64,000 nt of DNA from Natronococcus sp. AD-5 (GTDB lineage: Archaea > Halobacteriota > Halobacteria > Halobacteriales > Natrialbaceae), in the NCBI RefSeq assembly GCF_030734285.1, contig NZ_CP132294.1, forward strand, positions 2,356,001 to 2,420,000. The letters run 5' to 3'. Below the pieces are notes generated by a model that was given only the letters and a program-made list of their open reading frames with translations, searched no databases and was not told the DNA's origin. Below, piece by piece: positions 35,893 through 42,327 of the stretch. The translations under genes and the position numbers were made by a program. The first letter of the stretch is position 1, and the number at the start of each line of letters is the position of its first letter.

Positions 35893-38800
35893 CTACCCAG
35901 CGACCGCGTCCGAGACGGGAGACGATCCGATCGGTCCGCCGAGCGAGTTCGGTGCCGACTCGGTGTCGTTCTGCTCGTCGGCCGTCTCCTCGTCGGTCGT
36001 TTCATCGGCCGCCGTTTCACCGTCGGTGTCCCCTCCGTTCGTCGGTTGGTCGTCGGTCGCTTCCTCATCGGCGTTCTCTTCAGCAGTCTCTTCGTCCGCC
36101 GTTTCTTCGTCAACGGTCTCCTCATCCGTCGTCTCTTCGTCAGCCGCTTCCTCGTCGGTCGTCTCCGGCGATTCGGCCACGATCGTCACCGACGCCTCGT
36201 CGTCACCGGCGGCGACCGCGTGCGTCGATTCACCCTCCGCCAGCGGGGGCGAGGTAAACGCCACGTCGATCGACTCGCCGCCCTCGAGTTCGATCGGTTC
36301 CTCCGCGACGGGTTGGCCGTCGACGCCGTAGGACACCGTTTCCGTTCCGGCCTCGTCGCCCTCGTTCTCGATCGTCGCCTCCACCGTCACTTCTTCGCCG
36401 GCCTCTCCCGTCACGGGTGCCGAAAGGTCCGTGACCGCGAAGACGGCCGGCTCGGCGGGCTCTTCGATCGTCACCGTCGTCTCCGCGGCGTCGTCCTCGC
36501 TCGAGACGGTCGCCGCGTACTCGCCGGGTTCGAGGTCGGCGGTGTCGGCGACCAGGGTAACCGTCTCCGACTCTCCGGGCTCGAGTTCGACCGCCGTCGA
36601 ACCGGCGCTTTCGCCGTCTATCGCGAGGTCGACGTCTTGCTCTCCGGCCTCGTCGCCGACGTTTTCGAGTTCGGCAGCGACCTCGAGGGTCTCTCCCTGC
36701 TCGAGCGGCGCGTTCGTCTCGACGATTTCGACCGCGAACGCCGCCGGCTCGTCAGGCTCGAGTTCGCCCGCGGTCGGCGTCGCGGCGGTCAGCGGCTCGT
36801 CGTACTCGTACCGCGAGAGGTCGACCTCCCAGACCAGCCGTTCCTCGTCGTCCTGGGGCGTCCACTCGACGGTGAACTCGCCCTCGCCGGGCTCGAGTTC
36901 GGTCGGCGGCTCGTCCGCGGTCGTTCCCTCGACGAACTCGCTCGTGACGAAGAGGGGCGCGTCGTTGGGGTTCTCGTAGCCGAACGTCACGTCGATCGCG
37001 TCCTCCCCGACCGTCGTGTCGGTGACGTCGATCGACGGCTCGTCCGGCCGACTCTCCTCCAGACACGCTTCGCTTTCCGGGTTCGGATGGTCGATGGTGG
37101 CCGTCGGGATCGCCTCCGGCGAGCTGATTCCCGAGATGTAGGTGCCGTAGAGCCCGTACTCCGAGACGCCGACGGTGATCTCGTCGTCGCCCGCGAAGTC
37201 GTCTTCCGCGCCGACCTCGAAGACGATCGTCCCGGTGAACGGCGCCTCGACGTCCTCGCCGACCGTGATCCAGTCCTCGATGATCGTGTTGCCGAACCCG
37301 CCGGCGTCGTAAAAGCCCGTGCTCGCGGCGACCTGGTCGCCGTCCTCGAGCGACGCCGTGACTTCGGCCCTGGTGCAGTCGACGAACTCGACCTCGAAGC
37401 CGGGATCGAAGGTGTACTCGATCGTCTCGTTCGCCAGTTCCTCGCCGTCCGCGTCGACGAGGGCGACGTCGACCGTCGCGTCGTCCTCGAGCGGCGGCTC
37501 GAGCGGGATCGACTCGTTCTCGATCGTCTCGTTCGCGTCGAACGGTTCGGTTTCGGCGAGCCGCTGGCCCGCTTCGTCGGTCGCGGTGAGCGCGTACTCG
37601 ACCGTCGCGTTCGCCTCCTCGACGGCCAGCGACTGGCCGTCACCCTGTTGATCCTCGACCGAGAGCTCCGCGGTCGGGTCCGGGTCGGGCTCTTCGATCG
37701 CGTACTCGATCGTCTCGCTCGCCAGTTCCTCGCCGTCCGCGCCGACGACGGCGACGTCGACCGTCGTGTTCTCCTCGATCGGGGGGTCGAGCTCGAGTTC
37801 CAGATCCGTGGCCGTTTCCTCGGCCTCGAACGGCTCGCTCTCGACGCGTTCGCCGTCGTACTCCGCCGTGACCGCGTAGTCGACGGGCGCCGACGCTGCG
37901 CCGACGAGGAGCGTCTCGCCGTCACCCTCCTGATCGTCGACCTCGAGCGTCGCATCGGGCTCCGGTTCCTCGAGACCGACGAGCGCCTGGTCCGTCACGG
38001 GGACGCCGCCCGGTCCGGGGTACGGCACGTCCTCCTCGCCGCCGGTCTCGACGAAGTCGAATTCCTCGTTCTCGTTCGTATCCAGGTGCGCGACCGCGAT
38101 CAGCTGGCGGTCCTCCTCGAGCGGTTCCTCGAGGTCGATCTCGACGTCCTCGTACTCGCCGGGCTCGAGGTACGCCGAGGCGCCGCGAACGCTCTCGGTC
38201 GGCTCGCCCGCGAGGAATCCCTCGTCGTAAATCGCGACGAAGCCGCCCTCGGAGAGCTCGACGGAGTCGACGGTGACGGTCTCGCCGTCGGTGTCCTGGT
38301 CGGGGAGCGAGAGCCGCGCCTCGCCCTCGACGTCGTCGATCACCTCGAGTCGCTGTTCGATCTCGACCTCGAGGAACTGGGCGATCTCGGTCTCGTCGTC
38401 GATCTCTTCCTCGGCGGCGAAGGCGGCCGCGTCGGCCGCGCTCTCCTGCGTGAGTTCCTGCAACTGCGTGACGGTGATGCGCTGGTACTGGACGAGTCGC
38501 GCCGTCTCCTCGCAGGCGCCCCTCGCCGCCGTCCGGATCTGGGTCACCGTCGCCTCCTGGTGCTGCGAGAGCGAGCCGCTCGAGGCACCCTCGGCGAGTC
38601 GCTGGACCTGAACGACGTCGACGACCTGGTTCTGGATCACCGCGCCCTCGCCGGCGCCGAACGCGGCGGCCTGGATCTGCTCGACCTCGACGACCTGGTA
38701 CTGGATCGCCGACTCGACCGCGCCCTTCGAGGCGCCGGCCGCCGCGTGCTGGATCTGCGTGATCGTCACCTCCTGCTGCTGGACGAGCGCGCCTTGCGAC

Positions 38801-39939
38801 CCGCCGAGGGCGGCGGCCTGGATCTGTTCGACCGTCGCCTCCTGACTCTGGACGATCGCACCCGTCGCCGCGCCGAAGGAAGCCTCCTGGATCTGCGTAA
38901 CGGTGATCCGCTGGACCTGTTCGATCCGGACCGACTGGGCCTGTACCAGCGAACCCGTCCCCGCCCCGCGCGCCGCGGCCTGGGTTTGCTCGACCGTCAC
39001 CGTCTGCCGCTGAACGAGCGCGCCCTTCGCGGCGCCCATCGCCGCCGTCTGGACCTGCTTGATCGTCACCTCCTGGTACTGTTCGACCTCGACCTCCTGG
39101 ATCCGCTCGAGCGCCTCGGGCGTGCTCCCCTCGAGCGCGCCGGCCGCCGCCCCGGCCGCGGCGTGCTCGACGTGCTCGAGCGTGACCCGCTGGCGCTGCT
39201 CGACGGTGAGCTTCTGGTACTGCTCGACTGCGCCGTAGGCCGATCCCTGAGCCGCCTCCTGGATGACGGGCACCCGGTCGATGTCCCGCTCGCCGGCCTC
39301 GCTCGCGGCGCCCGCGGCCGCGCCTCGAGAGGCGACTTGAAGCTGCTCGACCGTCACGCGTTGCTCCTGAGCGAGCGCCCCGTGCGTCGCACCCCACGTC
39401 GCGCTCTGTAGCTGGGTCGCGGAGGCGGTCCGGTGTTGCTCGAGCGCGCCGTCGGTCGCCCCGCCGACGGCGACCTGGATCTGTTCGACCTCGACGCGCT
39501 GCTCCTGCAGCAACGCGCCGTGGACCGCCCCTTTCGTCGCCGCCTGAACCTGCTCGACGGACGCCTCCTGGTGCTGCGCGGCCGACTCCCGGGCGCCCTC
39601 GATCGCCGCTGCGCGCTGCTCCTGGGTCACCTCGATCCCCTGTTCCTGAACGAGGTCGATTCCCTCGTCGACGCCGTCTTCGACGGCCCCGTCGGATTCC
39701 TGTGAGAGCGACGCCTCCGCGGACGTTTCTCTTCCCATCGCGACCGGCTCGAACGACCCCTCCGTCGAACCTACCCGAGCGAGGTCGCCGACCCCCGCAC
39801 TCGAGTCCTGTTCAGTGACGTCGCCGACGGTTCCGTCGTTCCCGCCGTCGAGCGGCGAGCCACCGAGAACGGGGAGCGCGACAACGCTCGAAACCATCAC
39901 GACGGTGAGTATCGTCGCGACGAACGCGGCGCGATTCAT
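35893..39939 (-). CDS. Giant secreted repeat protein with Q-rich 23-residue repeats, DUF7282-like and CARDB-like domains
   Basis: 1348 residues from the ATG at 39939, whose product opens with a clear signal peptide (MNRAAFVATILTVVMVSSVV). Residues about 102-500 are an array of about 14 units of 23 residues, each TVEQIQ-like strand, AAAxGAxxGAL turn or helix, and closing Q (DNA about 38440-39636). Next come a DUF7282-like domain (VDSVELSEGGFVAIYDEGFL), two Ig-like repeats containing DGEELASETIEYA / DGEELANETIEYT, and two CARDB-like domains (LEVAAELENVGDEAGEQDV; VTVEATIENEGDEAGTETVS). The C-terminus is Glu/Thr/Asp-rich. There is no C-terminal anchor or sorting motif, so it is probably released or bound noncovalently. 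A GTG 15 codons upstream is less likely as start. Confidence 0.85.
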   Translation of the reverse strand: MNRAAFVATILTVVMVSSVVALPVLGGSPLDGGNDGTVGDVTEQDSSAGVGDLARVGSTEGSFEPVAMGRETSAEASLSQESDGAVEDGVDEGIDLVQEQGIEVTQEQRAAAIEGARESAAQHQEASVEQVQAATKGAVHGALLQEQRVEVEQIQVAVGGATDGALEQHRTASATQLQSATWGATHGALAQEQRVTVEQLQVASRGAAAGAASEAGERDIDRVPVIQEAAQGSAYGAVEQYQKLTVEQRQRVTLEHVEHAAAGAAAGALEGSTPEALERIQEVEVEQYQEVTIKQVQTAAMGAAKGALVQRQTVTVEQTQAAARGAGTGSLVQAQSVRIEQVQRITVTQIQEASFGAATGAIVQSQEATVEQIQAAALGGSQGALVQQQEVTITQIQHAAAGASKGAVESAIQYQVVEVEQIQAAAFGAGEGAVIQNQVVDVVQVQRLAEGASSGSLSQHQEATVTQIRTAARGACEETARLVQYQRITVTQLQELTQESAADAAAFAAEEEIDDETEIAQFLEVEIEQRLEVIDDVEGEARLSLPDQDTDGETVTVDSVELSEGGFVAIYDEGFLAGEPTESVRGASAYLEPGEYEDVEIDLEEPLEEDRQLIAVAHLDTNENEEFDFVETGGEEDVPYPGPGGVPVTDQALVGLEEPEPDATLEVDDQEGDGETLLVGAASAPVDYAVTAEYDGERVESEPFEAEETATDLELELDPPIEENTTVDVAVVGADGEELASETIEYAIEEPDPDPTAELSVEDQQGDGQSLAVEEANATVEYALTATDEAGQRLAETEPFDANETIENESIPLEPPLEDDATVDVALVDADGEELANETIEYTFDPGFEVEFVDCTRAEVTASLEDGDQVAASTGFYDAGGFGNTIIEDWITVGEDVEAPFTGTIVFEVGAEDDFAGDDEITVGVSEYGLYGTYISGISSPEAIPTATIDHPNPESEACLEESRPDEPSIDVTDTTVGEDAIDVTFGYENPNDAPLFVTSEFVEGTTADEPPTELEPGEGEFTVEWTPQDDEERLVWEVDLSRYEYDEPLTAATPTAGELEPDEPAAFAVEIVETNAPLEQGETLEVAAELENVGDEAGEQDVDLAIDGESAGSTAVELEPGESETVTLVADTADLEPGEYAATVSSEDDAAETTVTIEEPAEPAVFAVTDLSAPVTGEAGEEVTVEATIENEGDEAGTETVSYGVDGQPVAEEPIELEGGESIDVAFTSPPLAEGESTHAVAAGDDEASVTIVAESPETTDEEAADEETTDEETVDEETADEETAEENADEEATDDQPTNGGDTDGETAADETTDEETADEQNDTESAPNSLGGPIGSSPVSDAVAG
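38440..39636 (-). repeat. Coding array of about 14 degenerate 69-bp units
   Basis: Encodes the 23-residue repeats of the secreted protein. Units vary at DNA level but keep the Gln, Gly and Ala positions. Some units carry inserts (for example GERDIDRVPV and GSTPEALERI), so the array is not a recent expansion. Confidence 0.7.
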
Positions 39940-40259
39940 GACCCCGATACCCCGTCGACCGTTTGCCCCTTCGAACGTCTCCACCGCACGCCCCCTGTTG
40001 CACGAGTCGGTCGCATTCCTCCCGAAGGGAAGGTCAATACGACGAATAATCCCCCGCTGTAGTTCCAGTTAGCAGACGGAGACAATGCCGGATTACGACC
40101 GGCGATTGCTCGCGTTCGACGACGACAACGGTGCGGAGCTCCCTCGAGCGGCGGAGTCGCTTCGATCGGCGGGACTGACAACTGATAGTGACGAATTCAT
40201 CCGTTGCGACGGCAACTACCGCCGATACGTCCGATTTCCGTCGAGATGCGGCCGACCCG

Positions 40260-40287
40260 GTAAACCGAAGTTTTGATCTTGGTTTAC
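40260..40287. promoter_or_regulatory. BirA-type biotin operator upstream of bioY
   Basis: GTAAACC (40260-40266), 14 bp, GGTTTAC (40281-40287): the classical BirA operator form with N14 spacing. It lies 14 bp upstream of the bioY start, overlapping the expected promoter. This implies repression by a biotin protein ligase with a DNA-binding domain encoded elsewhere. Confidence 0.8.
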
Positions 40288-40301
40288 GGACGTGGTGGCG
40301 T

Positions 40302-40889
40302 ATGGAAACGGAACGGAACACCGTCGACCTCGTCGAGGGAGACGTCGTTCGCTCGTTCGCTCGAGCGGCCCTGCTCGCGGCCCTGCTCGGCGCGTCGGCA
40401 CCGGTATCGATACCGATTCCGCTGTCTCCGGCGCCGATCACGCTGCAGGTACTGTTCGTCTTCCTCGCCGGACTCTTGCTCGGTCCGGTCTGGGGAGTCG
40501 TCTCGATGCTGCTGTATCTCACAGCCGGTGCGGTCGGTCTTCCGGTCTTCGCGGGGATGGAGGCCGGCATCGGCGTACTGGTCGCGCACACGGCCGGCTA
40601 CCTCTGGTCGTATCCGATAGCCGCGCTGCTGATCGGGCTGATCGTCCACCGCGGCACCGACCTGCGGGATCCCGCCGACGTCTCGACTCCGGTCATCGTC
40701 GGTTCGCTGGTGATCGCGACGGCGGTCATCTACGCGATGGGCGTCGGCTACATGTCCTGGTTGCTCGACCTGGAGCTCTGGGAGGCGACCACGATGGGCG
40801 CACTCCCGTTTCTCCCCGGCGAGATCCTGAAGATCGCCGCCGCGGTCGCGATCGTCAAGAGCGGACGGATCGACCCGATCCGGTCGTAG
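40302..40889 (+). CDS. bioY: Biotin ECF transporter S component BioY
   Basis: 195 residues from the ATG at 40302 (METERNTVDLVEGDVVRSFA). Six helices, with the BioY core PITLQVLFVFLAGLLLGPVW, YLTAGAVGLPVFAG and LPFLPGEILKIAAAVAI. It captures biotin at the membrane and works with the BioM ATPase and BioN membrane partner encoded next. The BirA operator upstream fits. An in-frame upstream ATG is rejected because it would overlap the operator. Confidence 0.93.
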   Translation: METERNTVDLVEGDVVRSFARAALLAALLGASAPVSIPIPLSPAPITLQVLFVFLAGLLLGPVWGVVSMLLYLTAGAVGLPVFAGMEAGIGVLVAHTAGYLWSYPIAALLIGLIVHRGTDLRDPADVSTPVIVGSLVIATAVIYAMGVGYMSWLLDLELWEATTMGALPFLPGEILKIAAAVAIVKSGRIDPIRS

Positions 40890-40898
40890 CGAGAGACG

Positions 40899-41618
40899 AT
40901 GATCGAGTTTCGATCCGTCTCGTTCGGCTTCGACGATGTTCGGGTGCTCGAGGGCGTCTTGCTCTCCGTTCCGGACGGCGAGTTCGTCGTCCTCGCGGGC
41001 GCCAACGGCAGCGGAAAGACGACGCTGCTGCGCCACTGCAACGGCCTGCTGACGCCGGACGAGGGCGCGGTTCTCGTCGACGGAACCGACGTCGAGGACG
41101 ACCTGATCGCCGCGCGCACGAGCGTCGGCATGGTCTTCCAGCACCCCCGCGACCAGTTCGTCGCCGCGACCGTCGGCGCCGACGTCGCCTTCGGCCCGGA
41201 GAACCTCGGCCTCGAGCGCGACGAGATCGACCGCCGCGTCGAAAACGCGCTCGCGGCCGTGAACCTGGCGGGACGCGAGGACGAGCGGATCGACCAGCTT
41301 TCGGGCGGCGAGCAGTCCCGCGTGGCCATCGCCGGCGCGCTCGCGATGGAGCCGACCCACCTCGTGCTCGACGAACCCTTCACCGGCCTCGACGAGCCGG
41401 CCCGTCGATCGGTGCTCTCGCGACTTGAGGCGCTGGCCGCCGCCGGCACCGGAGTCCTGCTCGCGACCCACGACCTCCGGGACGTGCTCGGGCTCGCGGA
41501 CCGCGTGGTCGCGATGTCCGACGGACGAGTCGTCGTCGACGATCCGCCCGAAACTGCCGTCGAACGACTCGGGAGCCTCGAGGTTCGCGTCCCTCGAGAC
41601 CGGAGGACGGTTCGGTGA
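40899..41618 (+). CDS. bioM: ECF transporter ATPase BioM
   Basis: 239 residues, 9 bp after bioY. Walker A is GANGSGKTTLLRHCNG, the Q-loop is MVFQHPRDQFVAATV, the signature is LSGGEQSRVAIAGAL, Walker B is LVLDEPFTGLD, and the switch is THDLRDVL. This matches CbiO/EcfA-type ATPases. It energises BioY together with BioN. Substrate specificity is inferred from the operon. Confidence 0.9.
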   Translation: MIEFRSVSFGFDDVRVLEGVLLSVPDGEFVVLAGANGSGKTTLLRHCNGLLTPDEGAVLVDGTDVEDDLIAARTSVGMVFQHPRDQFVAATVGADVAFGPENLGLERDEIDRRVENALAAVNLAGREDERIDQLSGGEQSRVAIAGALAMEPTHLVLDEPFTGLDEPARRSVLSRLEALAAAGTGVLLATHDLRDVLGLADRVVAMSDGRVVVDDPPETAVERLGSLEVRVPRDRRTVR

Positions 41619-41622
41619 GCCG

Positions 41623-42327
41623 ATGCTGACCTACGAACCCGACGACACGACCGTCCACCGGCTCGATCCGCGGGCCAAGCTCGCGGTCCAGATCGGCTTC
41701 GCCGCGACCGCACTCGCGCACGCGACGCCGCGCGCGCTGGTCGCCCTTTCCGGGCTGACCGCGGTCGTGCTGCTCGCCGCTCGAGTGCGACTGCGCAGGA
41801 CGCTCTACGCCTATCGGTTCGCGCTGGTCGTGCTCGCGCTCGGTCCGATCGTCGCGGCGGCGACGCTGGGGCCGCCCTGGATCGACCTCGACGCCGGTTT
41901 CACCACCGCGCTGGCGAGCTACCGGGTCCTGCTCGTCCTGCTCGTCAGCGCCGCCTACGTCCGGACGACGCCGGTTCGTCACTCTCGAGCCGCGATCCAG
42001 CGGACGATCCCCGGAAAGCCCGGCCAGCTGCTCGGGATCGGCGTCGCGCTCGTCTTCCGGTTCCTTCCCGTGCTCCAGACGGATATGCGGACCGTCCGCG
42101 ACGCGATGGCCGCGCGACTCGGGACCGAACGGAGGGCCGTCGATCGGCTCACGACGCTCGGGCTACTTGGCCTCTCGCGGACGTTCGACCGGGCCGACCG
42201 GCTCGCGCTCGCGCTCCAGGCCCGCTGCTTCTCGTGGAATCCGACCCTCCCGCCGCTGTCGTTCTCTCGGCGCGACGTGCCCGTACTGAGTCTCTCGGTC
42301 GTCTTGCTCCTGACCGCGTTCGTGTGA
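41623..42327 (+). CDS. bioN: ECF transporter transmembrane component BioN (EcfT)
   Basis: 234 residues from the ATG at 41623, 4 bp after bioM. EcfT/CbiQ-like: LDPRAKLAVQIGFAA at the start, four to six helices, and the conserved coupling regions MRTVRDAMAARLG and LALALQARCFSW. It couples the ATPase to BioY. It ends the operon, followed by 380 bp without a gene. Confidence 0.88.
   Translation: MLTYEPDDTTVHRLDPRAKLAVQIGFAATALAHATPRALVALSGLTAVVLLAARVRLRRTLYAYRFALVVLALGPIVAAATLGPPWIDLDAGFTTALASYRVLLVLLVSAAYVRTTPVRHSRAAIQRTIPGKPGQLLGIGVALVFRFLPVLQTDMRTVRDAMAARLGTERRAVDRLTTLGLLGLSRTFDRADRLALALQARCFSWNPTLPPLSFSRRDVPVLSLSVVLLLTAFV

What the first reader, a model, noticed from the sequence alone, without database searches (positions are those of the whole stretch)
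35893..39939. Secreted protein built on about 14 units of a Q-rich 23-residue repeat
Sequence shows units of TVEQIQ-like strand, then AAAxGAxxGAL, then Q-x-Q, repeated through residues 102-500 with only a few inserts. The Gln positions recur every unit, and Gly/Ala alternate at fixed places. I know of no named archaeal domain with this pattern. The periodic Gln, small residues and strand-forming VxVxQ segments recall curli-like or beta-solenoid stacks, which could make an extracellular fibre or matrix. DUF7282-like and CARDB-like adhesion modules follow. The fibre idea is inference.
Basis: partly seen in the sequence, partly recalled or inferred. Interest (0 to 1): 0.75.

Follow-up and report, generated by a model that had tools for sequence, protein, structure and literature searches.

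The report
Unnamed helical-repeat surface protein of haloarchaea
Salt-loving archaea carry a secreted protein whose front part is a stack of about 15 near-identical short helices of a kind not in the protein-family libraries searched; it is probably a stiff stalk on the cell surface, not the amyloid-like fibre first suspected.

Summary
The repeat is real: residues 109-493 of a 1348-aa secreted protein hold 15 units of 23 residues (some with +3 or +8 insertions) plus a degenerate cap. It is an old, vertically inherited module: 65-89% identical across Natrialbaceae genera, almost gap-free, units conserved by position, in the same place (beside bioY) in 27 of 27 loci. Relatives occur in four further Halobacteriales families, with different C-terminal modules. 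No Pfam, NCBIfam, PHROG or PDB-sequence match covers it, so it is an unnamed domain family.

The curli/beta-solenoid reading is not supported. AlphaFold2 gives an all-helical repeat (one helix per unit, pTM 0.90), reproduced with a distant homologue (pTM 0.89; three of five models at pLDDT 87-88). Sequence evidence agrees: variable positions form one 80-degree stripe on a helical wheel (P=0.002), covariation peaks at i+4, and an N-cap residue (S/T/N/D, 92%) sits where the helix starts. No solved structure has the same global fold (best TM about 0.24).

Most likely it is a rigid alpha-solenoid stalk carrying DUF7282, Ig-like and CARDB modules outside the cell. The function is inference. The gene is cleanly absent at its usual site in three Natronococcus relatives, so it is dispensable.

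The parts
35893..39939 (-). whole gene, 1348 aa plus stop
   Evidence: open frame; 27 of 27 syntenic orthologues
39862..39939 (-). signal peptide, residues about 1-26 (MNRAAFVATILTVVMVSSVVALPVLG)
   Evidence: read from sequence; no twin arginine; orthologues start alike
39658..39861 (-). low-conservation N-terminal linker, residues 27-94
   Evidence: 20-34% identity to orthologues
38461..39615 (-). 15 repeat units, residues 109-493: 23 aa each, three with added octads (31, 39, 31 aa), three with +2 or +3
   Evidence: AF2 one helix per unit
38395..38460 (-). degenerate C-terminal capping unit, residues 494-515
   Evidence: score 6 against 14-44 for the other units; long helix in both models
37981..38319 (-). 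DUF7282 domain, residues 541-653
   Evidence: Pfam PF23951, E 8.4e-37
37387..37980 (-). two similar Ig-like/beta modules, residues about 654-851 (DDQEGDG..., EDQQGDG...), not in Pfam
   Evidence: read from sequence; 51-59% identity to orthologues
37048..37386 (-). module with the pair Cys855/Cys959, residues about 852-964
   Evidence: sequence and Cys positions
36466..36756 (-). first CARDB-like module, residues about 1062-1158
   Evidence: second CARDB stretch; limits from the paralogous hit in the same genome
36184..36435 (-). second CARDB module, residues 1169-1252
   Evidence: Pfam PF07705, E 3e-12
35896..36159 (-). acidic Thr/Glu/Asp-rich low-complexity tail, residues 1261-1348
   Evidence: 40% D+E, no K/R; DNA tandem repeat of period 15/45; poorly conserved

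Best explanation
The protein is exported through a signal peptide. Its N-terminal third folds into a rigid alpha-solenoid: about 16 helices of 16-17 residues, one per 23-residue unit, joined by extended 5-6 residue linkers (Q-x-Q-x-V). Each helix begins at an N-cap (S/T/N/D at position 19, with V18 and I/V/L23 as a hydrophobic staple) and packs tightly on its neighbours through a Gly/Ala face (A3, G6, A7, G10, A11). The invariant Gln side chains (1, 14, 16, 22) probably hydrogen-bond the helix ends and linkers of neighbouring units. Neighbouring helices are most likely antiparallel (up-down). The rod acts as a stalk or scaffold at the cell surface that carries adhesive or ligand-binding beta modules (DUF7282, Ig-like, CARDB) outside the S-layer. 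Shown by computation: the repeat, its conservation and the family-wide helix pattern. Predicted: the solenoid. Inferred: the Gln bonding, the up-down order, and the stalk and adhesion role.
For: AF2 of residues 95-515 with 57 sequences: pLDDT 88.6, pTM 0.90, about 17 helices, no strand. AF2 of homologue L104, with none of the window's orthologues in the alignment: pLDDT 87.8/87.6/86.7 in three models, pTM 0.89, one helix per unit, no strand. The five most variable helix positions (21, 2, 5, 9, 13) fall in an 80-degree arc at 100 degrees per residue, reached by 0.2% of position sets; the tightest angle is 98 degrees, and 180 degrees fails. Within-unit covariation is strongest at separation 4, top pairs 4-8 and 20-1. 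Position 19 is S/T/N/D in 92% of 300 distinct units. Gly and Gln dominate the invariant columns over 57 family members. Unit order is fixed: same-numbered units 74% identical across species against 41% between units of one protein, and 605/675 best matches fall on the same-numbered unit. The array is far less acidic (net -7 per 100 residues) than the beta modules (-27), as a tightly packed body would be. The module is joined to varied surface modules in relatives: DUF7282 copies, right-handed beta-helix/NosD, TSP3 repeats plus a CAP domain, CARDB. The nearest Foldseek neighbours are up-down helical repeats, namely TAL effectors, designed helical repeats and FD15.
Against: In the first AF2 run only one of five models was confident (88.6 against 63.6, 59.8, 59.2, 31.5). 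Positions 14-22 show a strict every-second-residue conservation pattern, as a strand would. Foldseek found no globally similar solved structure (TM about 0.1-0.24). Covariation did not settle antiparallel against parallel neighbours (band tests not significant). Model coordinates could not be inspected. No experimental localisation or phenotype was found, and the window protein has no recognised C-terminal anchor.
Confidence: 0.6

Rival explanations
1. Beta-solenoid or curli-like amyloid fibre former: the QxQxVTVEQ segments stack as strands with Gln ladders.
For: Alternating conservation at positions 14-22; periodic Gln; Haloferax volcanii biofilms stain with Congo red and thioflavin T, and no matrix amyloid protein has been proven there, only a candidate gene named (PMC4180959).
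Against: Two AF2 runs give helices only; variable positions 21, 2, 5, 9, 13 follow helical, not strand, spacing; i+4 covariation; no curlin-repeat hit; Natrialbaceae paralogues carry twin-arginine-like leaders, which by general knowledge export proteins already folded.
Confidence: 0.1
2. Helical repeat whose main job is binding (a polysaccharide, S-layer glycan or extracellular DNA) on the variable stripe or the Gln-rich linkers, rather than being a spacer.
For: The array is the constant part while the C-terminal modules vary; the Gln are invariant; array length is nearly fixed among orthologues, unlike typical spacers; Foldseek's nearest helical neighbours are TAL effectors (E 1e-5).
Against: TM to TAL effectors is only 0.10-0.15 and no TAL family profile matches; the exposed stripe is the variable part; no ligand evidence.
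Confidence: 0.22
3. An elastic or disordered Q/A/G-rich spacer without a fixed fold.
For: Low-complexity composition (Q 16%, A 20%); low pLDDT in some models.
Against: About 70% identity with almost no gaps over 421 residues between genera, position-specific units and a high pTM in two predictions: disordered spacers drift in length and sequence, as this protein's own acidic tail does.
Confidence: 0.05

Closest known systems
Alpha-solenoid repeats (TAL effector, TPR, HEAT; designed helical repeats DHR, FD15)
   Same: tandem helices with short linkers packed into a predicted ordered rod; Foldseek local hits to TAL effectors, DHRs and FD15
   Different: one helix per 23-residue unit instead of two per 33-40; Gly/Ala packing face; invariant Gln; secreted; TM only about 0.1-0.24; no shared sequence profile
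Curlin repeat proteins (CsgA/CsgB)
   Same: units of about 23 residues with periodic Gln and Gly; extracellular
   Different: predicted helix, not strand-turn-strand; no curlin profile hit; none of the conserved neighbours is a csg-like gene; large multi-domain protein with Ig-like modules
Glycine-zipper families (e.g. Pfam Gly-zipper_YMGG, PF13441)
   Same: GxxxG-type helix packing; one of 35 relatives gives a weak hit (E 0.007)
   Different: about 12-24 tandem units in a secreted solenoid, against short zipper segments
DUF7282 / CARDB haloarchaeal surface proteins
   Same: the C-terminal half carries these domains; other proteins of the same genome match these regions
   Different: the N-terminal helical repeat is not part of either family

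Membership tests
Curli / curlin repeat | curlin repeat profile (Pfam Curlin_rpt) match | tested here: not met
   no hit for P0002 at E<=10 or for 35 relatives at E<=0.01
Curli / curlin repeat | beta strand-turn-strand per repeat | tested here: not met
   AF2: helices only; helical substitution pattern
Curli / curlin repeat | amyloid polymerisation and dye binding | not testable with these tools
   needs expressed protein
Alpha-solenoid (structural class) | tandem helical units, one body, regular period | tested here: met
   by prediction only: one helix per 22-26 aa unit, pTM 0.90 and 0.89
Alpha-solenoid (structural class) | similarity to a solved solenoid | tested here: not met
   only local matches; best query TM about 0.24 in the PDB
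TAL effector-like repeats | 33-35 residue two-helix repeat and TAL profile match | tested here: not met
   23-residue period; no profile hit; TM 0.10-0.15
Pfam DUF7282 | profile score above gathering cut-off | tested here: met
   126 bits against cut-off 27, residues 541-653
Pfam CARDB | profile score above gathering cut-off | tested here: met
   47 bits against cut-off 22.7, two stretches
PGF-CTERM/archaeosortase substrates | C-terminal PGF-CTERM signal profile | tested here: not met
   no NCBIfam hit for the window protein and none of that kind for L097, L098, L109, L110

The most novel reading that the evidence does not exclude
A new alpha-solenoid class built from single glycine-zipper helices clamped by invariant glutamines, evolved in haloarchaea as a salt-tolerant extracellular rod, which may also assemble end to end or side by side into surface filaments.
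Probability: 0.25. Interest if true: 0.7.

Novelty: new variant of a known kind. Interest (0 to 1): 0.5.

Why it matters
It defines an unnamed protein domain family found in about 31% of sampled Halobacteriales genomes (122 of 392) and most Natrialbaceae, annotated as 'hypothetical protein' where checked. It offers a possible new solenoid topology that works in saturated salt with little surface acidity, and a concrete candidate component of the poorly known haloarchaeal cell surface. It also corrects an amyloid guess before anyone spends bench time on it.

Tried and rejected
One search covered the PDB with an out-of-frame translation and is void; the in-frame search and the family profile found nothing. 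Viral contigs and phages have no relative; plasmids only two, both haloarchaeal. A rule that unit number changes in steps of four looked tempting but failed on inspection: L132 and L129 differ by one unit. Covariation between neighbouring units to decide parallel or antiparallel packing gave mostly antidiagonal top pairs and a strong 11-4' coupling, but the band tests were not significant, and one search was spoilt by invariant columns. A first Fourier test of helix periodicity was not significant; the arc test on the same data was, so the arc test is a second look and its P value should be read with that in mind. Natronococcus is known for a cell-wall polymer rich in poly-glutamine (general knowledge), but the repeat occurs across the order, so no link is claimed. 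A TAL-effector relationship was rejected (TM about 0.1, no profile hit).

Full report
Observation. The window (a Natronococcus-like genome; the closest named orthologue is from Natronococcus pandeyae, 89% identity over the repeat) encodes on the minus strand a 1348-residue protein with a Sec-type leader. Residues 91-530 show an identity autocorrelation at 23 residues with z = 12 over shuffles, plus 31 and 8. Fifteen units and a degenerate cap can be laid out. Insertions come as whole octads (23, 31, 39) or as 2-3 residues.

Conservation. One full-length orthologue per genome is found in most Natrialbaceae genera, at 65-89% identity over the repeat. Across 27 named orthologues the repeat has essentially no gaps and is the best conserved part of the protein (65-78% identity to the window, against about 48-64% for the beta modules and 10-20% for the tail). 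Units are conserved by position (74% same index against 41% between units; 605/675 best matches on index), so the array is not being homogenised or expanded in this lineage. The gene lies beside the divergent bioY in 27 of 27 loci, with the small hypothetical genes on its other side found in all of them. In three Natronococcus genomes those neighbours are adjacent and the gene is absent, so it is a dispensable, vertically inherited gene.

Distribution. A family profile finds relatives in 122 of 392 sampled Halobacteriales genomes, in five GTDB-style families, including Halomicrococcus (Haladaptataceae) and Halobaculum (Haloferacaceae) by matching records. A sample of 295 genomes of the whole phylum gave 13, none outside the order. 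There were none in viral contigs or phages, and only two plasmids of 72,556, both haloarchaeal. Other phyla were not systematically searched. Where annotation was available the protein is 'hypothetical'.

Architecture in relatives. In the relatives read here the repeat is N-terminal. What follows varies: DUF7282 in one to four stretches, Ig-like and CARDB modules, right-handed beta-helix/NosD, TSP3 repeats with a CAP domain, or Thr/Pro-rich tails. Paralogues L112-L114 have twin-arginine-like leaders and, in L112 and L114, 26-residue units.

Structure. AF2 on residues 95-515 gave a confident all-helical model (pLDDT 88.6, pTM 0.90), but only in one of five models. A second run on homologue L104, with an alignment that holds none of the window's orthologues (other rows 48-62% identical to L104), gave three models at 87-88 and pTM 0.89, again one helix per unit and no strand. 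Evidence that does not depend on AF2: the five most variable positions of the helix segment lie in one 80-degree stripe (0.2% of position sets; optimum 98 degrees per residue); within-unit covariation peaks at i+4; and the position just before the predicted helix is S/T/N/D in 92% of units, a classic N-cap. The helix face opposite the stripe is Gly/Ala (A3, G6, A7, G10, A11 at 87-100% small). The alternating pattern at positions 14-22 fits an extended linker running into the helix start and is the one feature that still looks strand-like.

Comparison. Foldseek against the PDB finds local matches to TAL effectors and designed helical repeats but no global match (query TM at most about 0.24); the viral library gives nothing. 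No Pfam, NCBIfam or PHROG family covers the array, and no PDB sequence matches. The literature searched does not mention DUF7282 or this repeat. The class of object, a helical solenoid on a surface protein, is known; the 23-residue single-helix Gly/Gln unit appears to be undescribed in the libraries consulted.

Function. No experiment bears on it. The leader, the beta modules, the variable C-terminal partners and the strongly acidic remainder fit an extracellular surface protein. The constant, rigid, position-conserved array fits a stalk or scaffold, or a binding surface. I put about 0.6 on the stalk/scaffold reading, 0.22 on binding, 0.1 on a beta fibre.

Noticed in passing
L147, L148, L149 (G008, G003, G007), between the h35.5 and bioY genes: Clean natural absence of the gene in three Natronococcus genomes, with the flanking genes adjacent.
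   Followed up: yes
L112, L113, L114: Paralogues with twin-arginine-like leaders; L112 and L114 have regular 26-residue units and differ by four units, a lineage where the array does expand.
   Followed up: partly
L110:2153-8518: 2122-aa relative combining the repeat, 14 TSP3 repeats, hemicentin-like modules and a CAP domain.
   Followed up: partly
window 35970-36166: DNA tandem repeat of period 15/45 encoding the Thr/Glu/Asp acidic tail; the tail is poorly conserved between orthologues.
   Followed up: partly
window 37387-37980: Two Ig-like modules beginning DDQEGDG/EDQQGDG, resembling DUF7282 openings but below Pfam detection.
   Followed up: no
window 40188-42327: Divergent biotin transporter operon bioY, ATPase, CbiQ-like, conserved next to the repeat gene in nearly all orthologous loci.
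   Followed up: partly
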